A stretch of 47,447 nucleotides of DNA, from NCBI GenBank assembly GCA_944324835.1, contig CALUXV010000009.1, forward strand, positions 1-47,447, given 5' to 3'. The notes under the pieces were generated by a model. The model was not told the DNA's origin. It saw only the letters and a list, made by a program, of their open reading frames with translations, and made no database searches. Below are positions 27,132 through 47,447 of the stretch, piece by piece; position 1 is the first letter of the stretch; each line of letters opens with the position of its first letter. A program made the position numbers and the translations under genes. This DNA comes from Candidatus Gastranaerophilales bacterium (GTDB taxonomy: Bacteria > Cyanobacteriota > Vampirovibrionia > Gastranaerophilales > Gastranaerophilaceae).

Positions 27132-27419
27132 AAAACTCTCCTTTCTTTTTATTTCAATAAAATTATAACATAAATGAGTATAATAAAACGCTGGTAGATT
27201 TAAACCAAATCGTACTTTCAATATTTATATACGGTTCGCCGAACAAGTTCGGGCTCACCTGTCTTAGATTATTGGTAGTTCAGGGGTAAAGGGATAAATA
27301 AAGAAATATTATGTATAATGAACAGAATGGTTTGGTGTTGATGTCTTGTAGCAACAAATTAAACTAGTAGAATTAAACCAAACCGGAAATAAAACGTAAC
27401 CTGTCTACGCACGTAGTGC
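27132..27419. other. Intergenic region upstream of ADH with possible structured RNA
   Basis: No clear gene is present. On the minus strand TATAAT and TATACT near 27160-27185 are candidate ADH -10 elements. On the plus strand TATAAT (27314-27319) precedes GGTTTGGT (27329-27336), which pairs with ACCAAACC (27377-27384), with an inner TGTTG/CAACA. GCAC-gta-GTGC (27409-27419) follows. This could be a small RNA or a decayed repeat; it has no T-tract on the plus strand. Confidence 0.3.
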
Positions 27420-27444
27420 AAAAAAAAGGACAAAGATTGTCCTT
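27420..27444 (-). terminator. Terminator of the flagellar operon
   Basis: On the minus strand, AAGGACA-atctt-TGTCCTT (27444 to 27426) forms a perfect 7-bp stem followed by a run of eight T (27427-27420). It lies about 37 bp after the flgL stop codon and is a typical intrinsic terminator for the flgF-to-flgL transcript. Confidence 0.9.
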
Positions 27445-36346: not shown

Positions 36347-36379
36347 TTATAAATAAACTTGATTTTAAGAGAGCATTTT

Positions 36380-37174
36380 TTATATAAAGTTAAATTTTAT
36401 ATTATAAACCATATTATCTAAAATCTTTAATGTATCAGGGTTTGGCTGCGTAAGAAGTTTATTTATATCTTCTTCAAAATTTGCGGGCAGTATTTCACAA
36501 TGTTCTTTTGCATACTCGACAAGTTTCTTTTCTCCGGGGTGCAAGAGTTCATTTTGTGCAAAAATTATATCAAAATAACTTGCAAGAAATGCAGATATAC
36601 GATGGTTTACGCTATTATAATCGTTTCTAGATAAAGCTTTTTCTATTTGTTCATAATATGATGCAAAAGGTTTGTCTTTTAAAAGCATCATATTTCTTTT
36701 GATAATATTTTGTTTTAATTCTTTTGGATAAGGCGTATTAAGCTTTTCCTTCAAATTTTTCAGCCAGTTATCTTTATCATAAAGGATTTCACAGTTTTTA
36801 ATAGTAAATAAGAAACACGTTGTATATCCGTTTGATGGATAATGTTTTTCCCAAACGTTTTCAATAACATTTTCAATCCATTTTTTATTAAAATACATTA
36901 CATCCAGTTGTTGGTTTATTTTATCTACAAAAAACTCATCTCCCGAACCAAAATATTCTCCGCCGACTTCGTATTTAGATGAATATTTTTTTACTAATTC
37001 AAGCCGTTCTGCTATTGATATATCTTTTTCAACAAAAATATAAGTATCAATATCCGATTTATCATCCGCAGTATTCGCTTTTTGAGAACCGCCTATTGCA
37101 ATACTTTGAACTTCCGGGAAATTTTGAAATTCATTAATAATTTTGTCAAACGTTTGTGACATAAAACCATTCAT
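36380..37174 (-). CDS. Nucleotidyltransferase-fold protein (DUF4037-like)
   Basis: About 264 residues. The N-terminal pol-beta-type nucleotidyltransferase motif is IAIGGSQKANTADDKSDIDTYIF: GGS, then SDID with the two metal-binding Asp, and a third Asp probably in QQLDVMYF. The C-terminal half is helical (KQNIIKRNMMLLKDKPFASY and NHRISAFLASYFDIIFAQN), as in aminoglycoside-type or DUF4037 enzymes. Substrate is unknown. The farthest upstream start is a TTG at 37213; the ATG at 37174 or 37162 seems more natural, and none has a strong ribosome binding site. Confidence 0.7.
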   Translation of the reverse strand: MNGFMSQTFDKIINEFQNFPEVQSIAIGGSQKANTADDKSDIDTYIFVEKDISIAERLELVKKYSSKYEVGGEYFGSGDEFFVDKINQQLDVMYFNKKWIENVIENVWEKHYPSNGYTTCFLFTIKNCEILYDKDNWLKNLKEKLNTPYPKELKQNIIKRNMMLLKDKPFASYYEQIEKALSRNDYNSVNHRISAFLASYFDIIFAQNELLHPGEKKLVEYAKEHCEILPANFEEDINKLLTQPNPDTLKILDNMVYNIKFNFI

Positions 37175-37234
37175 ATCAGAATTTATTTTACTATTAAATA
37201 TATTTATATACAAGATATGAATGAGTATTGATTA

Positions 37235-38239
37235 TTATTGTTCCGCTAATAATTTTATATTTTCTTTTTGAATCATATCCGCAAGTTCTTCTTCGGTTGG
37301 GAGAATTGTTTTATACTTGCTTGCAAAAATCTGCCGGCTTTCCTGTAATACTGAATATTTGACCATAGTTTCAGATTTATCCGTACAAAAAATTATGCCG
37401 ATAGTTGGATTATCGTCTGCACCACGCTTTAGTTCGTCAAACATTCTGACATACATATCCATTTGCCCGATATCTGCATGAGATAATTTTGTAGTTTTTA
37501 AATCAATGACCACAAAGCATTTTAGCAGATAATTATAAAACACCAAATCCGCATAAAAATGGTCTGTTTCGGTACTAATTCTAAATTGGCGTGCAACAAA
37601 AGAAAATCCTTTGCCAAGTTCAAGCAAAAACTTCTGTAAATTATTGATTAAAGCCGATTCTAAAACACTTTCTTTGCCTTCAATATTTTCAGGTAAATCC
37701 AGAAATTCCAAAACATACGGATCTTTGATGAATTCTTTTGTATTAATAACGGTAGGCAGACATTTTTCAGCATCATTTACTTCTGCTTGAGAGGATAAAA
37801 GTCTGTGATAATATCCGCTTTTGATATTACGTTCAAGCTGGCGTGAAGTCCAATTCTGTTCTGATGCCTCTTTTAAATAATAATCTCTTTCTTGTTTGTT
37901 ATCTATTCTGATAATAGTTCTGATATTTGTCCAGGATAAATTCGCTACGCACTGCGTATCGAATTCCGGGTATGTAAGATAGAATTGTCTCATGTTTTTC
38001 AAATTCGCTTCTGAAAAGCCTTTGCCGAAAGTATTTGTCAGGTATCTTGACAAATTTTCAATAAGTTTTGTTCCGTACTCAGCACGGGAGGCTCCGCCCT
38101 GCTCTTCTTCAACAATACGCTGTCCGATTTTTCAGTATGTTTCAACCATAATTGAATTCACGGTATGATAAGCTTTCGCCCGTGCTAAGTTCAATAACTC
38201 TGCTATATCACTATATATTTTAGAAACTTCTTGTGACAT
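37235..38239 (-). pseudogene. DUF1016 / PDDEXK nuclease (YhcG-like), interrupted by an in-frame TGA
   Basis: Read from ATG 38239, the gene encodes MSQEVSKIYSDIAELLNLAR and continues to VNSIMVETY. Codon 36 (38134-38132) is TGA where the family has Trp (ETYWKIGQRIVEEEQ). Reading then continues in the same frame through EYGTKLIENLSRYL and the complete C-terminal PDDEXK domain (FYADLVFYNYLLKCFVVIDLKT, motif pieces YADLVFYN and VVIDLKT) to 37235. A single TGG-to-TGA change explains the break. Re-initiation could still make a 272-residue nuclease domain. DUF1016 proteins are nucleases often found with restriction systems or mobile DNA; the function here is unknown. Confidence 0.85.
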
Positions 38240-38283
38240 AAAATTCCTTATATAAAATATTTACCATTAGTATTATTGTACGT

Positions 38284-41037
38284 TTAAAAACATTTATATA
38301 CAATATTTTGCTCATTTAATTCCACAAACTTTTTATAAACATAAGGGATATTAACGGCTATTTCGCCAAATTCTTCATCAGGTATCAGGTTATAATCATT
38401 TATAAAGTTCTTATCCAGACTAATTTTATATTCTCCTGGTGCTACACCTGAAAAATAATAATTTCCCTCATCATCAACCGTTGAATACGCAACTTCAACA
38501 CCATCTTTGTCATACAATGACACAATAAAATCCGTTATATTCATTTTCCTGTCAAAATCGTCTTTAATCGAAAGTTTACCGGTTATATTTCCTACAGAAC
38601 TTTTTAGAGGAAATTCTACTCTCGTTGTTTTTTGGGGCTCAACAAGAATACATTCACTTACATTCTTTTGTGCCGAAAGATTTGCATGCAGATTATCCGT
38701 ATCAAGAGATACGTTATACATCCCTTTATCTACGCTTTGCAAATCACAAAATCCGCTCCGTTTTGTTCTAATAGAATCAGATTTCCATCCGACTTTTACC
38801 GGAACATTTGAAACCTTAATATCTCCCCTGTCAAACTTGCCGTTATTATTTTTATCAATATATGCAGCAACTTCTACAAAACCTTGATTCGGCGAATTTG
38901 TACCGATTGATTGCAGACCGTTATCGGTAAATGCCAGAGTATCATTTACCGTAAAATTGATTGAGTGGCGTGCGTTTGATGGAATATACATATTATTAAA
39001 CAAATATCCCATTGCATTGTTATACTGATAATTTAAACTCACTACCATGCCGGTCCTTGTTCTGTACCCGACCGCAGCACTATACGTACATCCGCCGTCT
39101 AATCCCTGATACTTATATCCGACTCCGACTCCAAATAAAAGTCTTTTAAATTCCGGAAACTGATAGTTAACCTTAATCATATTATAGTTATTGTTTGTCC
39201 CGTTTGAATCGTATTTAACACTGTCGTGCCCGAGTTTCACAATCCCCTTATTTTTAGGCAGTCTGTAGTTTAGATTTGCGTAAGTCATACTGTAAGAACT
39301 TTTAAACCCGTACATTGATGTAAATTCCGGAGAATACTCTGTGTTATATGCATTTCCCATGTTTCCTGCTTCGACTGAAAGATTTTGGCTCAAATTTTTT
39401 GACAGGTTCAGATTATAGTAATAATTAAGGTTGTTTCCTATACTGTTTTCTCCGTACCGCATATTCCCGTTAAGCCGCAGCCTCGTACCTTTGAATAATC
39501 TTGCCCCAATGTTAAAATACCCTTCGTCAAAAGATGTCAGCCCGCCCATATATCTGTCATCAAGGTTTGAATAATACCTTGTATATCTAAAATTCGCATT
39601 CAGGTTATCTTTTACATACGCTGCACCAATCTCTGCACCTAATCTGTCGCAGATAAAACCGGAATCCGAACCTGCAACGTAATAATTTGGCGATTGTTGA
39701 TAAAGACGTAATTTGAACGTAGAATTTTTATAATCAAACACATTCTCTAATGAAAGAGAATACCCCGGGTTATATTTGTTATCAGGGTTGTAGTAATCAT
39801 TCATAACAGAGAGCCCTGCAAGAGCGTTTAAACTGTAAAATTTATTTTTATAAAAATTCAATGTATTAATCATTGTTGTACCTTCCATCGTATTAGGATT
39901 CCGGTATACTCCTGATGATAAAATTGAATAATTCTCGTATAATCCAGGAATAAAAAGTGCATCATTGTTTCTTTGGATAATCGTATCGTGAATAATTTTT
40001 GTATCGAGTTTTAAGTTATCCCGAATCCCGTATTGACGGTCAAATCCTGCAACGAATTTTTTAGAGGTCATCTGGTAAATATACCCGTTAGAACTAAATA
40101 ACCTGTTATTAAATCCTGATATCCCTGCGAAAATTCTTTTTCTTGATTCACCCTTTTTTAAAAATTCAGAATATTCTCTGCTTCCTTCCTGTTTGAGATA
40201 TTCATTATAATCAGACAACTGTGCACCGATAAGCATTGTACCGATTGTATTGTATCTGTCTTTTAATCCAGATACCTGGCCTAACTCATAAAACAAATCC
40301 CGAAATTTATTCTTGTAAGTAAAACTCAATCCCCCAAAAGAAAAAAATTCATCCGCATAATTATTGGTATTAAAATTCAGAGCATAATCTCCGCTATATA
40401 ATTTCCCTTTCAGACTCATTCTCGTATTGTTATTAAACATCACATTATTTTGTGTTGCATTCAGATAAACCTGTTTTGTTGAATCGTTCATCATAGAGTT
40501 ATTAACTTCCAGAGTATCAAATGAAATCTTCCCTTTTCCCTTCGGAGTGATGGTTTCTTTCTGCGGGATTTCTTCTTCTGATTGACTATCTGATGACGGA
40601 GTAAGATACTTGTTGTTTAAAGTTACACACAGAGAAACAGCATCAACTTCAATATCTGATTCAAATATTCTTGATGCTGTTTTTTCGCTTATAAAAAACT
40701 CATCCGACTCTATTATCCCATCTCGCTTAAAAGTTACGGTAGAATCAAGTTTATTGTTATTTAAATATACTCCGTCACGTTTAATAACAACACTTTCCCT
40801 GTTATGGGTTTTGAATTTTATTTCTTTTGCGGAATGATTTTCTTCAAAAGGGATTTTGAGTATCCTTGCGGTTTGTTTAACCGGAATATACGCATGGTTA
40901 GCGGAATCCATATAGAGTTCAATATCTTTTGTATCGGAATTATTAACCTCAAGCGATGTTATTGTTGTTTCATCAGATTGGGCATAACAAATACAGGGAA
41001 ACAGTATCAGGAAAAGAAAAATAATTATTTTTTTCAT
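38284..41037 (-). CDS. Outer-membrane usher-like protein of a fimbrial system
   Basis: A 917-residue secreted protein (signal peptide MKKIIIFLFLILFPCICYAQ). Residues about 25-145 resemble a copper-amine-oxidase-N type repeat (AYIPVKQTARILKIPFEENH, VVIKRDGVYLNNNKL). About 175-720 is Tyr/Asn-rich with alternating strands, as expected for a large beta-barrel. From about 722 there is an EF-hand-like AAYIDKNNNGKFDRGDIKVS domain and then a CNA-B / carboxypeptidase-regulatory-like domain (DDEGNYYFSGVAPGEYKISL). Size, barrel pattern and position after chaperone and pilin genes point to an alternative (alpha or CS1-like) usher. It overlaps the preceding pilin gene by one base (TGATG). Confidence 0.65.
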   Translation of the reverse strand: MKKIIIFLFLILFPCICYAQSDETTITSLEVNNSDTKDIELYMDSANHAYIPVKQTARILKIPFEENHSAKEIKFKTHNRESVVIKRDGVYLNNNKLDSTVTFKRDGIIESDEFFISEKTASRIFESDIEVDAVSLCVTLNNKYLTPSSDSQSEEEIPQKETITPKGKGKISFDTLEVNNSMMNDSTKQVYLNATQNNVMFNNNTRMSLKGKLYSGDYALNFNTNNYADEFFSFGGLSFTYKNKFRDLFYELGQVSGLKDRYNTIGTMLIGAQLSDYNEYLKQEGSREYSEFLKKGESRKRIFAGISGFNNRLFSSNGYIYQMTSKKFVAGFDRQYGIRDNLKLDTKIIHDTIIQRNNDALFIPGLYENYSILSSGVYRNPNTMEGTTMINTLNFYKNKFYSLNALAGLSVMNDYYNPDNKYNPGYSLSLENVFDYKNSTFKLRLYQQSPNYYVAGSDSGFICDRLGAEIGAAYVKDNLNANFRYTRYYSNLDDRYMGGLTSFDEGYFNIGARLFKGTRLRLNGNMRYGENSIGNNLNYYYNLNLSKNLSQNLSVEAGNMGNAYNTEYSPEFTSMYGFKSSYSMTYANLNYRLPKNKGIVKLGHDSVKYDSNGTNNNYNMIKVNYQFPEFKRLLFGVGVGYKYQGLDGGCTYSAAVGYRTRTGMVVSLNYQYNNAMGYLFNNMYIPSNARHSINFTVNDTLAFTDNGLQSIGTNSPNQGFVEVAAYIDKNNNGKFDRGDIKVSNVPVKVGWKSDSIRTKRSGFCDLQSVDKGMYNVSLDTDNLHANLSAQKNVSECILVEPQKTTRVEFPLKSSVGNITGKLSIKDDFDRKMNITDFIVSLYDKDGVEVAYSTVDDEGNYYFSGVAPGEYKISLDKNFINDYNLIPDEEFGEIAVNIPYVYKKFVELNEQNIVYKCF

Positions 41038-41645
41038 CAGGGTTTCCTGTATATATTTAACATCACTACTGCTTCATAAATTCCTGCCGAGTCATCCTCT
41101 ATTGAATAAGTTCCTGCAAGCGGAGTATTTCCTACCAGCTGTGAAACATTAAAATTCTGTTTCCCGCCGCTTAAAAACTTGCAGCACATATTTCCGTTAT
41201 ACATTTGATAATCGGTTTGAAATTCAGGATTTTTTATAACAGGGTAGGCTATTAAATTTTTATTTGACTGCGGATACAAAGAAGATATATCGCCATAAGA
41301 TGCTAAATCCGGCAATATTTCTTTATTTCCAAATATCAGGTATAAATCTCCATCTTTTAGAAAATACCCGCTTCTCTCACCTGAATTTGTATTAACGCTA
41401 CTTGATATCACAAAATCATAAGTACTGTCATCACCGTTTGTTTTAACATTAAATAATGCCTCTAACCCCTTGTGGCATCCGGTCTGTGGATTAATAGAGG
41501 TATTATTCATTGAAGAGGGAACTGTATTCACAACTGCTGCAGACGGGATTATGACCGTAAGATTGCTGTTCATAACCGCCGCACCGGAACATGCCGGTGC
41601 GGTGACAAATATAAGACATAAAAAGGTAAAAAAATTACGTTTCAT
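41037..41645 (-). CDS. Pilin-like secreted subunit 2
   Basis: A 202-residue secreted protein with signal peptide MKRNFFTFLCLIFVTAPACS followed by GAAV. It is a paralogue of the preceding gene: both share INPxTG, a GYFLKDGDLYLIFGNKE-type strand (GFFQKGDTVYVILGHTT in the other), an xxNxIAYPV motif, and a C-terminal AGIYEAVVML strand (AGNYEAYIIL in the other). Such shared terminal strands are expected in subunits that assemble by donor-strand exchange. Cysteines (C57 region, and MCCKF) may form disulfides. The gene starts 9 bp after pilin-like 1 and ends inside the usher start. Confidence 0.65.
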   Translation of the reverse strand: MKRNFFTFLCLIFVTAPACSGAAVMNSNLTVIIPSAAVVNTVPSSMNNTSINPQTGCHKGLEALFNVKTNGDDSTYDFVISSSVNTNSGERSGYFLKDGDLYLIFGNKEILPDLASYGDISSLYPQSNKNLIAYPVIKNPEFQTDYQMYNGNMCCKFLSGGKQNFNVSQLVGNTPLAGTYSIEDDSAGIYEAVVMLNIYRKP

Positions 41646-41654
41646 AAAAATACC

Positions 41655-42266
41655 TTATGTTGTAGTATCTGTCAGGATAATATATGCTTCGTAATTCCCT
41701 GCTTTATCCCTGTATGAATAAGTTGACTGATCAACATTCGGCGATATAGTAGTTGTTGCAACTGTTTCGCCTTGTTCAACGCTGAACTCGTAACGTGCTT
41801 TGTCTTGAACAAATACAGGTTCTTTAGTGTATTTGCCTGAAAGCTGTACCCCTGTTACAGGATATGCAATTGCATTCTGGTTGTTTTCTGGAGTTGCATT
41901 TCCGCTTTTAATATCAGCAATAGCAGCTTCATTAGGTTTAACGGTTGTATGCCCTAAGATTACATAAACCGTATCTCCTTTTTGGAAAAATCCGTCAACC
42001 GCACCTTTTGTATCAGCAATTGTTTCTGCACGCAAATACAAATCAAGATTATCGTTTGAACGAATTTTGAATACTGAATTGAATGCGTTTGAGAGTTGAC
42101 CTGTTGCAGGGTCAATGTTTTCTTTCAAAACACCTTCCTGAGCCTGAATATCTACATAAGCCGGCAATGTTGCCTGAAGTGTTTGTTTTGCAAAATTCTC
42201 TGCATGTGCACAACTCCCGATTGCTGCGAATACAAGCATCGCAGTCAAGATTTTGTTTTTTTTCAT
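41655..42266 (-). CDS. Pilin-like secreted subunit 1 (likely major)
   Basis: A 203-residue protein with signal peptide (MKKNKILTAMLVFAAIGSCA then HAENFAKQ). The mature N-terminus reads FAKQTLQATLPAYVDIQAQEG. The mature part has no cysteine and is beta-strand-rich. The C-terminal segment AGNYEAYIILTDTTT matches the paralogues. It lies directly after the chaperone gene with a strong ribosome binding site (AAGGAGAAAC on the minus strand), consistent with being the most highly expressed, major subunit. Family assignment is by context and internal paralogy, not by a named pilin motif. Confidence 0.65.
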   Translation of the reverse strand: MKKNKILTAMLVFAAIGSCAHAENFAKQTLQATLPAYVDIQAQEGVLKENIDPATGQLSNAFNSVFKIRSNDNLDLYLRAETIADTKGAVDGFFQKGDTVYVILGHTTVKPNEAAIADIKSGNATPENNQNAIAYPVTGVQLSGKYTKEPVFVQDKARYEFSVEQGETVATTTISPNVDQSTYSYRDKAGNYEAYIILTDTTT

Positions 42267-42279
42267 AGTTTCTCCTTTT

Positions 42280-43107
42280 CTAAATTGTGTGATTTACTTG
42301 AAACGGGGTTTCCTTTATTAAATTTTTCGTTTCATTTTTTTCGTTTTTGTAGGTCAAAATAACTTTTAATATGTACTCTCCATCTGCAAGATTATCAGGA
42401 AGTTTTCCGATTTCTTTAAATATTCCGTTTGCACGAATAGTATTACTGTTCATAGGAAATTCTTTTACCAATTTCCCTCCTTGTATTATCTGCCCCTTGC
42501 CATGGTATCTGACTTTGCTGTTTCCTCCTGCACTTAGATTGAGATTATATACAAGGTTTCTGTTCCGGTTTTCAACTTTCAAATCATCAAATCTCCCGAC
42601 TTTTACAACGTGTCCTTTGTCAACGTAAATCGGGATTCCCAATCGTGTTTTTACAATAAGTCTTGTATTTACGTTTTTATAATTATTCGGAAGCTGTATT
42701 TCTTTTGTAGCAACATCTTCCACAAACATTACCATTCTGGATTCGCCGTCCGGCAGACTTTTTAGATCAGTAAACGTTACACGTACAACCTGAGGAACAC
42801 CGTTTTTCAGCGTAAATTCATTGGGTACAAAACGTGCATGAGAAATTAGATTATCAGGCTTTTCCGATTTTGGTGCGGAATCCATTTTGCCGTTATCGGT
42901 TATCGTGAAATATTCAGGATAAAGTTTAAACCTTACTGTTTCGTCTTTGCCTGCCTGAACACTGAATGAGGTTGTAAGATAGTTCCCCTTACTTTTATTC
43001 GTATTGAGTTCTATCAATGTAGGCATTACTTTTACCGCCGCAAACGATGAATTAATATGAAATATTAATGCAAATAAAATTGCGGATAGTTTTATTATTT
43101 TTCTCAT
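42280..43107 (-). CDS. Periplasmic fimbrial chaperone-like protein
   Basis: A 275-residue protein with signal peptide (MRKIIKLSAILFALIFHINS then SFAAVKV). The body fits a two-domain immunoglobulin-like chaperone: VMPTLIELNTNKSKGNY at the start, FVPNEFTLKNGVPQVVRVTF, and SRMVMFVEDVATKEI, the pattern of the PapD-type first domain. A second domain has NLNLSAGGNSKVRYHGKGQI. Its role would be to hold pilin subunits until delivery to the usher. It lies between an adhesin-like gene (1 bp away) and pilin-like 1 (13 bp away). Confidence 0.65.
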   Translation of the reverse strand: MRKIIKLSAILFALIFHINSSFAAVKVMPTLIELNTNKSKGNYLTTSFSVQAGKDETVRFKLYPEYFTITDNGKMDSAPKSEKPDNLISHARFVPNEFTLKNGVPQVVRVTFTDLKSLPDGESRMVMFVEDVATKEIQLPNNYKNVNTRLIVKTRLGIPIYVDKGHVVKVGRFDDLKVENRNRNLVYNLNLSAGGNSKVRYHGKGQIIQGGKLVKEFPMNSNTIRANGIFKEIGKLPDNLADGEYILKVILTYKNEKNETKNLIKETPFQVNHTI

Positions 43108-43108
43108 T

Positions 43109-44002
43109 TTATTCCCTTTCTAATATATAGGTAAACGGATTTTGCCGAATACCTTCTTTTATATATTTGTCTGTACTTGTATTTTTTAGTGAATATTCTA
43201 TTAATACGTTGGTCGGAACTCGGTTCCCGACATCTATCCCCTCAAGTGTTTCTTCTCCTGATGCAAGAAGATATCTCTGGTTCGAAATTATTCTGATACG
43301 TTCTTGGTTGTATGAAGATACTTTCCCCGAAGCATTTTTTAATTGGCAGTAATACTCACAGTTTTCATCCTCAAGATTCGCCGTATCAAGCCAGAGTTTC
43401 CATTTTGTATTTGATGTCAAATCAAGTCTTATATCGTTTTGGTTTCTGATTACATTTTGAAAATTAAAGATATCATCATCAGTGAGAATAATAACAGGGT
43501 CTCCGCTTAACACCGTTATTGTATGTTTTTCATCAATCATAAATGTAAAAAATAATTCGCATTCATAATCAAGCGTAAATCCTGTTTTGTCTAAAAATTT
43601 CAACAGTACTGTATAATTCCCTGCCGGCAATTCTCCAATATTTTCGAGTTTAAGAGTAATATTTTTTTGTGATGTCCCTGTTATATCAAAGTTGTCGATA
43701 AAAAATCTCTGCCAGTTATTTGTTCCTATCTGGAATTCCTGACCGTCTGCCAGCAGATACAAGTTTTGGATTGGAATTTTGATGTTCGGGTTGTCGTTGT
43801 TTGTTATAAATTCATCTGCGGCCATAACAAACAAACTTGAAAATCCTACTTGAACATAAGTAAGATTTACATTTGCACTGACAGAATTATCCGTCACAAT
43901 AGGAAATCCTGTAACTTCGGCTCTGAAAAACGGATTGGCAGAAGTTTTTACGGGAATCATTATAGAAATCAATATAATAATTAAACTTATAATACGTTTC
44001 AT
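43109..44002 (-). CDS. Secreted fimbrial accessory or tip-like protein
   Basis: About 297 residues from ATG 44002 (an upstream TTG at 44020 adds six). A signal peptide (MKRIISLIIILISIMIPVKT then SANPFFRAEV) is followed by a beta-rich body with SVSANVNLTYVQVGFSSLF and LKLENIGELPAGNYTVLLKF. Cysteines occur in YECELFF and ENCEYYCQL. No family was recognised. As first gene of the chaperone-pilin-usher operon and larger than the pilins, a tip subunit or adhesin is plausible, but that is inference. The start codon is separated from the divergent gene by about 150 bp. Confidence 0.6.
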   Translation of the reverse strand: MKRIISLIIILISIMIPVKTSANPFFRAEVTGFPIVTDNSVSANVNLTYVQVGFSSLFVMAADEFITNNDNPNIKIPIQNLYLLADGQEFQIGTNNWQRFFIDNFDITGTSQKNITLKLENIGELPAGNYTVLLKFLDKTGFTLDYECELFFTFMIDEKHTITVLSGDPVIILTDDDIFNFQNVIRNQNDIRLDLTSNTKWKLWLDTANLEDENCEYYCQLKNASGKVSSYNQERIRIISNQRYLLASGEETLEGIDVGNRVPTNVLIEYSLKNTSTDKYIKEGIRQNPFTYILERE

Positions 44003-44017
44003 TTTTTTATAAATCCT

Positions 44018-44038
44018 CAAACCTTTTATAAAAGTTTG
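44018..44038. promoter_or_regulatory. Palindrome in the divergent fimbrial promoter region
   Basis: CTTTTATAAAAG is a 12-bp perfect palindrome flanked by CAAAC and TTTG, giving an almost continuous inverted repeat over 21 bp. It sits just upstream of the ATG at 44002 and in the interval between the two divergent fimbrial transcripts, where a regulator could control both. Confidence 0.4.
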
Positions 44039-44149
44039 TAATAACTAAAAAAACCGTCTGATGTAGAAAATATGGGATGATATTTTTTTATCCAAAAGGG
44101 GAATTTGTATATTTTTATGAAAAAGTTAGAGTACTTATGAGGAAATTTA

Positions 44150-44623
44150 ATGAAGAAATACTTAATTTTGTTATTGTGTTTAATAAATTCAGGAATAACA
44201 TTTGCCACAGAATCAAGACAAAATATACAGGCAGTTCTGCCGGAGGTTTTGCATATAGATAAAATTATCGTTGAAGGCAAAGAATTTGATAAAGACGAAA
44301 AATTGACTGTTATGGATATAAAAGCAGTAGAAAATTTAAGTGAAAGCTGCTGCCGCTTAAATTTGAGTCCTTTTTCCTTACGTATAAATACAAACCTTGC
44401 AGACCCGATTCAGGTAAGTGCAAAATTCGAAAATTGCTGCAGTTCTTGCGGAAGATACCCGATGGATAATGAGGATTTATCTGTTACTCCGTCATCTTAT
44501 ACAATCTACAATCCATATGACAAAATAGAAACGGATTTTTTTACTCCGCAGGTACTGGCACATGATTATACTGTTTGTACAACTTATAACGCAAAACTTG
44601 TTATTACTCTGGGGCGGGTATAA
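44150..44623 (+). CDS. Small pilin-like secreted protein with Cys pairs
   Basis: A 157-residue secreted protein (signal peptide MKKYLILLLCLINSGITFAT). It resembles the two pilin-like proteins at the N-terminus (RQNIQAVLPEVLHIDKII compared with LQATLPAYVDIQ) and at the C-terminus (TTYNAKLVITLGRV compared with YEAYIIL). Mature cysteines occur as SCCRLN, ENCCSSCGR and YTVCTT. It is therefore probably a minor fimbrial subunit transcribed divergently from the main operon. GAGGAAATTTA precedes the ATG. It is followed after 2 bp by a membrane-anchored partner. Confidence 0.6.
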   Translation: MKKYLILLLCLINSGITFATESRQNIQAVLPEVLHIDKIIVEGKEFDKDEKLTVMDIKAVENLSESCCRLNLSPFSLRINTNLADPIQVSAKFENCCSSCGRYPMDNEDLSVTPSSYTIYNPYDKIETDFFTPQVLAHDYTVCTTYNAKLVITLGRV

Positions 44624-44625
44624 AT

Positions 44626-45384
44626 ATGATTAAAAAAATTACGACAATTTTTCTGATTTTTTTATTAAATATTACCCCGGTAATGGCTCGAGTTGGAACT
44701 CCGACTTTCGATTTTGAAATCCCGGATTTGTTTAATAACCCTGATGTACCATCCGGCGAAAGAAAAAAAGATGACGGAGGCTTGTCAGGAGGAGCCGTAA
44801 CCGCAATAACTTTAGGTTCGATAGGCGGAGCCGCACTATTAGGTTTAGGTGGATGGCTTTATAGAAGAAAAGTCAGCCAGTGTTTGACTGCCGGCTGTAT
44901 TCAAGGGGCAAAAAACCCTTTGATACCTTTCTGTATGGAAAGAAATGCTGATGCTGAAGTTTACGTGAGAATAAATAATAATTATCCGTATCTGAAAAAA
45001 GCGTTGAGTCTTAATGAAATACATTATTGCCCTGATTCTCAATATCTGCTTATATATGATACCGTAATCGGCAAACGAAAATTTGATTCCGTAAGATTTT
45101 GCCTGCCGCAAGGAGTGCAGGAGTTAAGAATTACTCAGGTTAGCGACCCGTTTGAAGGTAATGATTTAACCGCTGAAATATTTTTGTATAAAAACGATTC
45201 AAATACAGAAGAACCTGTAATTGCGAATCTTTCTGATTGCGGACAAAATTCTTCTAAATCAGGGGTTCTTATTAAAACATTAAATACGAATTTTAAAGAG
45301 TATAAAACGGCATCTTATGTTGTTTCAAACTATACAGAGAAAAAGATTTACGCCGTTGTGATTGAGTTTGTGTATAGGAAATAA
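44626..45384 (+). CDS. Membrane-anchored secreted protein of the fimbrial locus
   Basis: A 252-residue protein with an N-terminal signal (MIKKITTIFLIFLLNITPVM then ARVG). A Gly-rich linker follows (GGLSGGAV), then a second hydrophobic helix AITLGSIGGAALLGLGGWLY with YRRK after it. A domain of about 170 residues with seven cysteines comes next (SQCLTAGC, FCMER, HYCPDS, FCLPQG, SDCGQN). The last residues AVVIEFVYRK resemble the pilin C-terminal strands. It could be an anchor or assembly component; no family is recognised. It is 2 bp from the preceding gene and surely co-transcribed. Confidence 0.55.
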   Translation: MIKKITTIFLIFLLNITPVMARVGTPTFDFEIPDLFNNPDVPSGERKKDDGGLSGGAVTAITLGSIGGAALLGLGGWLYRRKVSQCLTAGCIQGAKNPLIPFCMERNADAEVYVRINNNYPYLKKALSLNEIHYCPDSQYLLIYDTVIGKRKFDSVRFCLPQGVQELRITQVSDPFEGNDLTAEIFLYKNDSNTEEPVIANLSDCGQNSSKSGVLIKTLNTNFKEYKTASYVVSNYTEKKIYAVVIEFVYRK

Positions 45385-45432
45385 GTGATGAAGTAATTAA
45401 GCGATAAAGGCAGTGGATAGTGATTAGTGAAA
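45383..45432. repeat. GTGA-type heptamer repeat after the fimbrial locus
   Basis: Degenerate units such as GTGGATA, GTGATTA and GTGAAAC repeat with period seven just after the stop codon at 45384. They are the same family as those at 4436-4501, 5689-5720 and 13009-13041. The remaining sequence up to 45549 is AT-rich and carries the methylase promoter. Confidence 0.5.
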
Positions 45433-45537
45433 CTGGGTAAATATTTTTTTGTCACTGTGAGTATAAATTATTTCATACAATAATTTAAATCTATTTAAAA
45501 ATTTGGCCCAAATAGGATAAAGGAAAAATTTTTATAT

Positions 45538-45552
45538 TATAATTAACTCATG
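45538..45552 (+). promoter_or_regulatory. Putative leaderless promoter of the methyltransferase gene
   Basis: TATAAT at 45538-45543 ends six bases before the ATG at 45550. There is no ribosome binding site between them. A well-placed -35 hexamer was not found, so the promoter would depend on its consensus -10 or on an activator. Confidence 0.45.
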
Positions 45553-46308
45553 CAAAAGGTCTATGAAAAGGATGATATAACCTTATTTTTAGGTGATTGT
45601 ATTGAAATTTTAAATAAAGCAACTCCTGAATCAGTTGATATGATTTTTGCGGATCCTCCATATATGCTATCTAACGGAGGAATTACTTGCCATACCGGAA
45701 AAGTTGTTTCTGTGAACAAAGGCAAATGGGATGAGAGTAAAGGTATTGAAGAAGATTTCAAATTTCATCAGGCTTGGATTAACGCTTGTAAGAGAGTTTT
45801 AAAAACTAACGGCACTATATGGATTTCAGGTACTTACCATTCAATTTATGCTTGCGGATTTGCTTTACAGACAGCAGGATTTAAAATTCTAAACGATATT
45901 TGCTGGTTTAAGCCAAATGCTTCGCCTAATATGAGTTGTAGATATTTTACAGCAAGCCATGAAACATTGTTATGGGCAAGAAAAGACCCAAAAGGTAAAC
46001 ATACTTTTAACTATGAAGCAATGAAAAATGGTGATTGGGGTGAAGATTTTATTAAAAAGCCAGAAAAACAAATGCGTTCAGTCTGGGCAATAGGAACTAC
46101 AAAAAGTTATGAAAAAGAATTTGGTAAACATCCAACACAAAAACCTTTAGAATTGTTAAGGCGTATAATCCTTGCATCAACGAATGTTGGAGATTTGATT
46201 CTTGATCCTTTTACAGGAAGCTCAACAACTGGTATAATGGCTTTAGAATTAGATAGGAAATTTATTGGTATAGACTTGGAAAAAGAATATTTAGACGAAG
46301 TTGCTTAA
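45550..46308 (+). CDS. DNA adenine N6-methyltransferase, DpnA-like (GATC type suspected)
   Basis: A beta-class DNA methyltransferase of 252 residues. The catalytic motif IV DPPY is at residues 35-38, followed by MLSNGGIT and VVSVNKGKWDES. The SAM motif DPFTGSSTTG is near 219-228, preceded by KHPTQKPLELL. The run DPPY-LSNGGI-VVSV-KG-WD and CRYFTASHETLLWARK closely recall, from memory, DpnA (M2.DpnII), which methylates adenine in GATC and can act on single strands. The C-terminus ends about 15 residues earlier than DpnA, in KEYLDEVA. The stop codon lies two bases before the DpnI-type gene. Specificity cannot be proven from sequence. Confidence 0.85.
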   Translation: MQKVYEKDDITLFLGDCIEILNKATPESVDMIFADPPYMLSNGGITCHTGKVVSVNKGKWDESKGIEEDFKFHQAWINACKRVLKTNGTIWISGTYHSIYACGFALQTAGFKILNDICWFKPNASPNMSCRYFTASHETLLWARKDPKGKHTFNYEAMKNGDWGEDFIKKPEKQMRSVWAIGTTKSYEKEFGKHPTQKPLELLRRIILASTNVGDLILDPFTGSSTTGIMALELDRKFIGIDLEKEYLDEVA

Positions 46309-46310
46309 GT

Positions 46311-47075
46311 ATGAATTTATTTTTTAATACAAATTTAGCAGAAGAATATCACTCAAATTCACAGAAAATAAGGGTAATGAGTGAAAATTGGGTGAATGAT
46401 AACGTTTATTGCGTAAGGTGTGGAAACAAATTATCTCATTTTGAGAACAATAAACCTGTTGGGGATTTCTATTGTGAAAAGTGTAATGAAGAATTTGAAT
46501 TAAAGAGTAACAAATCAAAACTCGGCAAAAAAATAGTTGATGGTGCTTATGAAACAATGATAGATAAAATTAGAAATGGTGACGTACCTAATTTTTTCTA
46601 CTTGAATTATGATTTAAAAACTTATTCTGTTAATAATTTATTAATCATCCCTAAACATTATTTTACGGAAAGTATTATTCTAAAAAGACCTCCACTACCT
46701 GAAACAGCGCGTAGAGCAGGATGGATTGGTTGTAATATTGATGTTTCATCAATACCATCATCAGGAAAACTATACTTAATTTCTAATCGACAAGTTGTTG
46801 ATAAACAAGTGGTTATTTCTAATTTTAATAAAATGTTATTTTTAAGAAGTCAAAAGAATGAACTAAAAGGATGGTTATTGGATATAATGAAATGTATTGA
46901 TTTGTTAAATAAGAAAAATTTCACATTGGATGAAATATATTCTTTTGAAAATTTCCTAAAATTAAAACATCCTAATAATAACAATATTAGAGCAAAAATA
47001 AGACAGCAGTTACAATTTTTAAGAGATTATGGTTATTTAATATTTACTAAACGAGGAGAATATACTTTAGCATGA
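46311..47075 (+). CDS. dpnI: DpnI-type methyl-dependent restriction endonuclease
   Basis: A 254-residue protein, the same length as pneumococcal DpnI, which cuts GATC only when the adenine is methylated. Zinc-binding cysteines are C34, C37, C55 and C58. The PD-(D/E)xK site is D52 in VGDFYC with E63 and K65 in EFELKS. Shared features include YHSNSQKIRVMSENWV, RPPLPETARRAGWIGCNID and the C-terminal winged helix KIRQQLQFLRDYGYLIF, which in DpnI also reads the methylated base. It follows the DpnA-like methylase by 2 bp and overlaps the next gene by 4 bp (ATGA). Confidence 0.95.
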   Translation: MNLFFNTNLAEEYHSNSQKIRVMSENWVNDNVYCVRCGNKLSHFENNKPVGDFYCEKCNEEFELKSNKSKLGKKIVDGAYETMIDKIRNGDVPNFFYLNYDLKTYSVNNLLIIPKHYFTESIILKRPPLPETARRAGWIGCNIDVSSIPSSGKLYLISNRQVVDKQVVISNFNKMLFLRSQKNELKGWLLDIMKCIDLLNKKNFTLDEIYSFENFLKLKHPNNNNIRAKIRQQLQFLRDYGYLIFTKRGEYTLA

Positions 47076-47281
47076 AAACATTTATGTTTTATACGCGTGA
47101 TGGCTTTACGCAAGATATAAATAACAAGGATATTGATAATATGCAAATTTTAGGGTTTGTTCAAGGGAAAGATACGACATCTGCATATAAAAATTTTAGA
47201 AAAATTTTCAATCAAAATAATGAATTCTGTTTTAATGAAATAATTGTTCAAGAAGTTATTGGAAAACCAACATATTTATAA
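47072..47281 (+). CDS. Small protein coupled to the DpnI-type gene
   Basis: A 69-residue protein whose ATG overlaps the endonuclease stop codon (ATGA), so it is translationally coupled. It has no signal peptide or membrane segment. The sequence is mixed alpha/beta with IDNMQILGFVQGKDTTSAYK and FNEIIVQEVIGKP. In pneumococcus dpnI is followed by dpnD, so position suggests a DpnD-like accessory, but I do not see a convincing match to the DpnD/PcfM pattern. Function unknown. Confidence 0.6.
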   Translation: MKTFMFYTRDGFTQDINNKDIDNMQILGFVQGKDTTSAYKNFRKIFNQNNEFCFNEIIVQEVIGKPTYL

Positions 47282-47283
47282 CT

Positions 47284-47447
47284 TTAAAATGTATTCCTTT
47301 GCTTATAACTGTAAGAGCTAATGAAATTTATACAATAGATAAGGATGGGGAATTTAATTTTTCATTCAAGAAAATGAATTATTCTATTGAAGAATACAAA
47401 ATGTTTATGAGAAAAACGAAACTTTTTGACTTGTTACAAAACCACAT
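47284..47447 (+). CDS. Possible partial reading frame at the window edge, no ATG near its start
   Basis: The frame that includes 47284 is open from about 47239 to the end of the window. It encodes a protein-like stretch with VRANEIYTIDKDGEFNFSFK and NYSIEEYKMFMRKTKLFDLL. No ATG occurs before about 47374; ATT or TTG near 47293-47299 are possible starts. It may be a new gene with an unusual start, or the continuation of a frameshifted 47072 gene. It runs out of the window. Confidence 0.3.

What the first reader, a model, noticed from the sequence alone, without database searches (positions are those of the whole stretch)
38284..45384. A complete chaperone-usher-like fimbrial locus in a cyanobacteria-related genome
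Seven consecutive genes all encode secreted proteins: tip-like protein, two-domain Ig-type chaperone, two paralogous pilins and a 917-residue barrel usher on one strand, and a third pilin-like plus an anchored protein on the other. Chaperone-usher fimbriae are best known from Proteobacteria, with scattered cases in a few other phyla. The arrangement (chaperone, major pilin, usher) resembles alternative CS1-type operons, but sequence likeness looks slight, so this may be a separate clade with an unknown adhesive role, possibly gut colonisation or attachment to a host cell.
Basis: partly seen in the sequence, partly recalled or inferred. Interest (0 to 1): 0.85.

Follow-up and report, generated by a model that had tools for sequence, protein, structure and literature searches.

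The report
Divergent fimbrial locus, usher lacks plug
A gut relative of cyanobacteria carries a complete, fast-diverging set of genes for building hair-like adhesive fibres, and its outer-membrane export pore has cleanly lost the internal plug domain that every well-studied pore of this kind uses as its gate.

Summary
The seven genes are real, intact and recur as one block. The window is a Gastranaerophilales (non-photosynthetic, gut Vampirovibrionia) MAG. The 917-aa protein is a chaperone-usher outer-membrane usher: best PDB matches are FimD/PapC. The 275-aa protein is a PapD-like two-domain chaperone. pilA and pilB are paralogues; pilC shares only their N-terminal donor-strand-like segment; no pilin matches a known family by sequence.

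The unexpected result: the window usher and its whole clade lack the ~63-residue plug domain found between barrel strands 6 and 7 in sister Gastranaerophilales and cyanobacterial ushers. That excision is the only sizeable difference between the two forms; it happened once in the clade's ancestor; no plug is found elsewhere in the genome; the genes remain under purifying selection. The locus is patchy (12% of family genomes, none of 7 congeners), sits in a variable island and occurs as decayed copies, as expected of an adhesin cassette. Verdict: new variant of a known kind; function (adhesive fibre assembly by donor-strand exchange) inferred, not shown.

The parts
38284..41037 (-). Outer-membrane usher (917 aa), plug-less form: signal peptide, N-terminal domain ~22-141, beta-barrel ~166-705, two C-terminal beta domains ~715-917; residues 276-297 form a short variable loop where the plug sits in relatives
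   Evidence: AF2 pLDDT 82; FimD E 1.1e-20
41037..41645 (-). Pilin-like secreted protein pilB (202 aa), paralogue of pilA
   Evidence: pilA vs pilB E 1.9e-32
41655..42266 (-). Pilin-like secreted protein pilA (203 aa), probable major pilin; N-terminal extension with alternating hydrophobic residues, C-terminal strand motif D-x-A-G-x-Y
   Evidence: (homologue domain pLDDT ~95)
42280..43107 (-). PapD-like two-Ig-domain periplasmic chaperone (275 aa)
43109..44020 (-). Tip-adhesin candidate (303 aa, likelier start 44002), secreted, lacks the N-terminal donor-strand-like motif of the pilins
   Evidence: position and absence of motif only, fold not tested
44150..44623 (+). Minor pilin candidate pilC (157 aa), Cys-rich, shares the N-terminal donor-strand-like segment of pilA
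   Evidence: pilA vs pilC E 1.7e-5 over 32 columns
44626..45384 (+). Conserved Cys-rich protein (252 aa) with signal-peptide-like N-terminus and an internal Gly-rich hydrophobic segment followed by RRK; role unknown
   Evidence: conserved in the block
44021..44149 (.). Intergenic region between the divergent tip-like and pilC genes, presumed divergent promoter region
   Evidence: no invertible repeat found; promoter-like hits at chance level
36349..47447 (.). Variable island: absent from a congener whose flagellar cluster is 85.6% identical up to 36348; holds nucleotidyltransferase, YhcG nuclease, the fimbrial block, N6 methylase and DpnI-type endonuclease; runs to the contig end

Best explanation
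This is a chaperone-usher fimbrial operon of a deeply divergent clade within the archaic-like branch that also occurs in photosynthetic cyanobacteria. Sec exports the subunits; the PapD-like chaperone lends its G1 strand to pilA, pilB, pilC and the tip protein; the usher N-terminal domain recruits the complexes, donor-strand exchange links them through the pilins' N-terminal extensions, and the fibre leaves through the usher barrel, tip-like protein first, to act in adhesion in the gut. The usher has lost the internal plug domain that in FimD/PapC closes the pore at rest and helps recruitment, so its pore must be closed in another way (by the periplasmic domains, by the fibre itself, or by expression control) or be tolerated open. 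Shown: homology of usher and chaperone, block conservation, plug loss, purifying selection. Inferred: fibre formation, donor-strand exchange, tip identity, adhesion, gating.
For: Usher model (pLDDT 82) matches FimD/PapC best by Foldseek, E 1.1e-20, with 355-560 residues aligned by VIA, Z 15-16. Profile-profile match with PF00577-positive cyanobacterial ushers, E 2.3e-23; usher profile E 6e-11 to 7e-4 on seven of them, reversed controls E>8. Chaperone region best matches CfaA-CfaB, CsuC, FimC, PapD complexes and a profile link to the chaperone beside a cyanobacterial usher, E 2.5e-6. Block order conserved. pilA-pilB homology and shared pilA-pilC N-terminus. Plug: HMM of the 63-residue insert of sister ushers hits the plug region of a cyanobacterial usher (241-303, E 1.2e-7) and none of the short-clade ushers; excision is the only sizeable difference; single loss on a tree built without those columns, clade support 100; no plug in the whole genome while plug-bearing control genomes ring. 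dN 0.17-0.45 with near-saturated dS.
Against: No Pfam usher or PapD_N match over cut-off in the window proteins. Pilins match no known pilin family. The chaperone-pilin read-through model gave pTM 0.51, so donor-strand complementation is not shown. By VIA Z-score alone, AlgE/OprD-type porins outrank ushers on part of the barrel. No expression or imaging data.
Confidence: 0.85

Rival explanations
1. A chaperone-usher system that assembles thin non-fimbrial or capsule-like adhesive polymers (as F1 capsule or Afa types do) rather than rod-like fimbriae.
For: Two similar pilins, no detectable rod-specific features; pilin family unrelated by sequence to known rods. Morphology cannot be read from sequence.
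Against: Presence of a tip-like gene without donor segment and of minor pilin candidates suggests an ordered fibre.
Confidence: 0.25
2. It is an alternative (alpha, CS1/CFA/ECP-type) fimbrial operon acquired from Proteobacteria.
For: Order chaperone, pilin, usher; CfaA is the top Foldseek match of the chaperone, tied with CsuC.
Against: Usher profile does not see EcpC (E 13) but sees cyanobacterial ushers (E 6e-11); chaperone profile sees no ECP chaperone; plug-bearing relatives run through the whole class.
Confidence: 0.04
3. The usher is a dead or dying protein after plug loss and the locus is decaying.
For: Decayed copies and remnants of the locus exist in relatives (G228, G039, G120, G175); plug deletion in PapC opens a very large pore (PMC10418385).
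Against: All short-form copies in alignment A1 are open over 911-921 codons, 62-75% identical, with dN far below near-saturated dS in all seven genes.
Confidence: 0.06
4. Not chaperone-usher: an unrelated porin or polysaccharide exporter next to Ig-fold surface proteins (AlgE-like barrel, WxL-like binding protein).
For: AlgE/OprD porins have the highest VIA Z on ~300 residues; WxLIP of Enterococcus is the top VIA match of the chaperone.
Against: Foldseek ranks ushers first over the full length including C-terminal domains; sequence profiles tie both usher and chaperone to PF00577 operons of cyanobacteria; sister ushers carry the plug inside the barrel at the usher position.
Confidence: 0.02

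Closest known systems
Archaic-like (sigma) chaperone-usher operons of photosynthetic cyanobacteria (cccS/cccP plus slr0019-type usher, PMC4390875)
   Same: Homologous usher (E 2.3e-23 profile-profile) and chaperone (E 2.5e-6); same gene kinds clustered; same phylum
   Different: Pilins not recognisably SCPU; usher below the PF00577 cut-off; no plug; extra conserved tip-like, pilC and anchored proteins; seven-gene divergent layout
Plug-bearing ushers of other Gastranaerophilales and Vampirovibrionia (this work, L051-L062, L064-L069)
   Same: Same operon layout in the f1 family, about 29-40% usher identity there
   Different: They carry the 63-residue plug between strands 6 and 7
FimD/FimC (type 1) and PapC/PapD (P pili)
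   Same: Usher barrel with N- and C-terminal periplasmic domains; two-Ig chaperone
   Different: About 12% identity; plug absent here; classical carboxylate-anchor residues not found at the aligned positions
CFA/I (CfaA-CfaB-CfaC-CfaE) and ECP, alternative pathway
   Same: Chaperone fold (CfaA top Foldseek match), gene order; Arg148 of EcpB aligns with conserved Arg200 here
   Different: No sequence link of the usher to EcpC; CfaC is described with a plug in PMC7531860

Membership tests
Chaperone-usher pathway (superfamily) | Usher: large OM beta-barrel flanked by periplasmic N-terminal and two C-terminal domains | tested here: met
   AF2 model and Foldseek to FimD/PapC over ~830-1017 columns; homology to PF00577 ushers
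Chaperone-usher pathway (superfamily) | PapD-like chaperone of two Ig domains | tested here: met
Chaperone-usher pathway (superfamily) | Subunits with incomplete Ig fold completed by a neighbour's N-terminal extension | tested here: inconclusive
   N-terminal extension and C-terminal last strand seen by sequence and DSSP of the read-through model; complementation and pilin fold not tested separately
Chaperone-usher pathway (superfamily) | At least one subunit, chaperone and usher in one cluster | tested here: met
Usher as described for FimD/PapC (five-domain usher) | Internal plug domain inside the barrel | tested here: not met
   present in sister clades, so a secondary loss
Archaic (sigma) fimbriae | Usher and chaperone nearest to archaic ones | tested here: met
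   with cyanobacterial ushers as the archaic reference; CsuD/CsuC themselves were not scored by sequence
Archaic (sigma) fimbriae | Subunits of the spore coat U (SCPU, PF05229) family | tested here: not met
   hence filed beside, not inside, this clade
Archaic/alternative chaperones | Carboxylate anchor Arg89 (strand F1), Arg174, Tyr196 of CsuC | tested here: inconclusive
   Arg200 aligns with EcpB Arg148; F1 Arg124 lies two residues off the archaic Arg; no Tyr at the aligned site (residues from PMC4654587)
Alternative (alpha, CS1/ECP) fimbriae | Usher clusters with alternative ushers | tested here: not met
   EcpC only at noise level, E 13; no CfaC-type usher was scored

The most novel reading that the evidence does not exclude
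A working chaperone-usher pilus machine whose usher has no plug domain at all, so that pore closure and the plug's part in subunit recruitment are done by something else; a natural counter-example to the five-domain usher model.
Probability: 0.65. Interest if true: 0.75.

Novelty: new variant of a known kind. Interest (0 to 1): 0.6.

Why it matters
All ushers described in the papers read here are closed by an internal plug; removing it from PapC gives an extremely large pore (~3 nS per monomer, PMC10418385), and the plug also helps recruit subunits (PMC3960871). A clade that deleted it once and kept the operon under selection is a natural experiment on what the plug is for and how so wide a pore is kept safe. 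The system is also invisible to current usher/chaperone profiles, so fimbriae in this widespread gut lineage, credited in the papers found only with flagella and pili of the type IV kind (PMC5877343), have probably been overlooked.

Tried and rejected
Pfam and NCBIfam scans of all seven proteins: only SdrD_B/CarboxypepD-like hits in the usher C-terminal domains and a sub-threshold StbB hit for the chaperone. PDB sequence search with usher, chaperone and pilin profiles: no usher or chaperone hits. Whether the plug moved to another gene of the block or genome: no. Whether short ushers gained a compensating insert: no. Whether pilC or the anchored protein replace the plug: both also occur in plug-bearing loci. 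Phase-variation repeats in the divergent promoter region: none found. Contamination: the contig holds a flagellar cluster 85.6% identical to a congener, GC is uniform. The first-reader idea of CS1 kinship: not supported. In the VIA list AlgE/OprD porins top the barrel by Z; taken as generic barrel likeness because the alignments cover ~300 residues. In the f5 rows L073/L079 the 'plug' label is a length-threshold artefact: the plug HMM does not hit them. Literature searches for plug-less ushers found none, but most subscription papers are not held.
Full report
What was checked. The seven ORFs are present at the stated coordinates and strands, each with a signal-peptide-like start. The window is a whole 47,447-base contig of a 1.98-Mb, 97%-complete genome. 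Its nearest relatives in a named collection are Candidatus Gastranaerophilales MAGs and Candidatus Adamsella avium from chicken, so the genome is a non-photosynthetic gut member of the cyanobacterial phylum.

Conservation. The usher is found in 54 of 289 genomes of the class, and its gene neighbourhood was reconstructed in about 50 loci. Order and strands (tip, chaperone, pilA, pilB, usher; divergent pilC, anchored protein) are kept in about 30, with unrelated flanking genes. Between the window and its relatives amino-acid identity is 47-75% by gene, synonymous sites are near saturation and dN is 0.17-0.45: all seven genes are under purifying selection. Chaperone and usher are the most conserved, the tip-like, pilin and anchored proteins the least.

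What the usher is. Pfam sees only SdrD_B and carboxypeptidase-regulatory-like domains in the C-terminal part. An AlphaFold2 model from a 38-row alignment (pLDDT 82) has about 26 strand segments between residues 171 and 704, N-terminal and C-terminal beta domains, and Foldseek places FimD and PapC first (E 1.1e-20). VIA gives higher Z to AlgE/OprD porins, but over ~300 residues; ushers align over 355-560. Sequence agrees: cyanobacterial proteins that score over the PF00577 cut-off (18 of 386 phylum genomes, all outside the window's class) match the window family profile-to-profile over 699 columns (E 2.3e-23), and an HMM of the window family scores seven of them at E 6e-11 to 7e-4 while FimD (0.07), EcpC (13) and reversed sequences (above 8) do not reach significance.

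What the chaperone is. The alignment of 34 relatives shows the PapD-like layout. A read-through translation of the chaperone and pilA genes of the close relative L034 (stop read as Gly, a modelling device only, no claim that the cell makes it) gave a confident two-domain chaperone and a confident separate beta domain for the pilin, with a disordered N-terminal extension, but pTM 0.51, so their contact is not established. Foldseek matches of the chaperone are CfaA-CfaB, CsuC-CsuA/B, FimC and PapD complexes, and WxL-interacting proteins of Enterococcus. A core HMM links it to the chaperone beside a cyanobacterial usher (E 2.5e-6). Of the three non-classical carboxylate-anchor residues (PMC4654587), only the second-domain arginine clearly aligns (EcpB Arg148 with Arg200 here).

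Pilins. pilA and pilB are paralogues (E 1.9e-32); pilC shares only a 32-column N-terminal segment with pilA (E 1.7e-5), the part expected to serve as donor strand; no link to cyanobacterial or other known pilins was found. The tip-like protein lacks that segment, as expected for the distal subunit; its fold was not tested.

The missing plug. Ushers of other Gastranaerophilaceae-like genomes (family f1) are 959-1015 residues long; those of the window clade 911-921. The difference is one block of 63 residues after window residue 286, between the sixth and seventh predicted barrel strands. In PapC the plug is residues 264-324 of a 146-637 translocation domain (PMC4356140). An HMM of the extra block hits the plug stretch of a PF00577-positive cyanobacterial usher (residues 241-303, E 1.2e-7) and every long-form usher, but no short-clade usher; within those loci only chance-level hits to other proteins appear. 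A genome-wide search with its consensus finds it in two plug-bearing control genomes and not in the window genome or two short-clade relatives. The residual loop is hydrophilic and varies in length and sequence. On a tree built without those columns the short clade is one group (support 100) nested among plug-bearing lineages, so the loss happened once there; lineages f4, f9 and f5 also lack a recognisable full plug and may be separate cases.

Distribution. Within the family 34 of 288 genomes have the chaperone and none of the seven other genomes of the genus does. The window's flagellar cluster is 85.6% identical to that of a congener up to position 36348, where synteny ends; the locus lies in the following segment between a YhcG-type nuclease and a methylase-DpnI pair. 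Plug-less and plug-bearing types cut across genera, and G200 and G207 hold both, the plug-less one as a partial copy. Broken copies and remnants occur. This is the pattern of a transferable, often lost surface-adhesin cassette.

Mechanism. By homology the machine should work like other chaperone-usher systems: chaperone-bound subunits recruited by the usher N-terminal domain, donor-strand exchange, passage through the barrel. The plug, which closes the pore at rest and in the Pap system helps recruitment (PMC3960871), cannot take part. Deleting the PapC plug gives ~3 nS openings per monomer (PMC10418385). Therefore either the periplasmic domains or the fibre block the pore, or the cell tolerates or avoids an open pore by expression control. 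Which of these holds is not known.

Placement. It works like, and descends from, the chaperone-usher pathway; it is nearest to the archaic-like operons of photosynthetic cyanobacteria; it is not filed inside the sigma clade because its subunits are not recognisably SCPU, and not in the alternative clade because its usher does not match EcpC. No paper found describes chaperone-usher fimbriae in this group; published genomes mention flagella and type IV pili (PMC5877343, PMC4451040).

Noticed in passing
window 27255-27430: An intergenic repeat of up to about 175 bp with 10 matches in the window genome and 14 in a congener (70-89% identical), no Rfam match: a dispersed repeat family of the genus.
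   Followed up: partly
L070, L071, L074-L078 (class family f9) and L072, L073, L079 (f5): A second, distant usher-like lineage of mostly 856-921 aa with a larger chaperone and several ~200-aa secreted pilin-like genes nearby (in f9 next to NADH dehydrogenase genes); the plug HMM finds no plug in these ushers either.
   Followed up: partly
window 42280-43107 and relatives: The chaperone's best structural match by VIA is the WxL-interacting protein of Enterococcus faecium (Z 15.8, rmsd 7.4), and five distant relatives hit the Pfam WxLIP domain: PapD-like chaperones and the Gram-positive WxL-binding proteins may share ancestry.
   Followed up: no
window 45550-47075: N6/N4 DNA methylase followed by a DpnI-type endonuclease gene; DpnI-type enzymes cut methylated DNA, so the pairing is odd.
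   Followed up: no
window 37235-38053: DUF1016/YhcG PDDEXK nuclease next to the fimbrial block, in the variable island.
   Followed up: no
L054 (G228), G039, G120, G175, G207:C81: Broken or remnant copies of the fimbrial locus, showing recurrent decay.
   Followed up: partly
window 44626-45384: The anchored protein has a second hydrophobic Gly-rich segment followed by RRK, then a Cys-rich domain; by the positive-inside rule that domain would be cytoplasmic, at odds with its cysteines.
   Followed up: no
usher N-terminal domain of 38284-41037: Most relatives match the copper amine oxidase N-terminal-like domain (PF07833, 25 of 38 rows) rather than the Pfam usher N-terminal domain.
   Followed up: no
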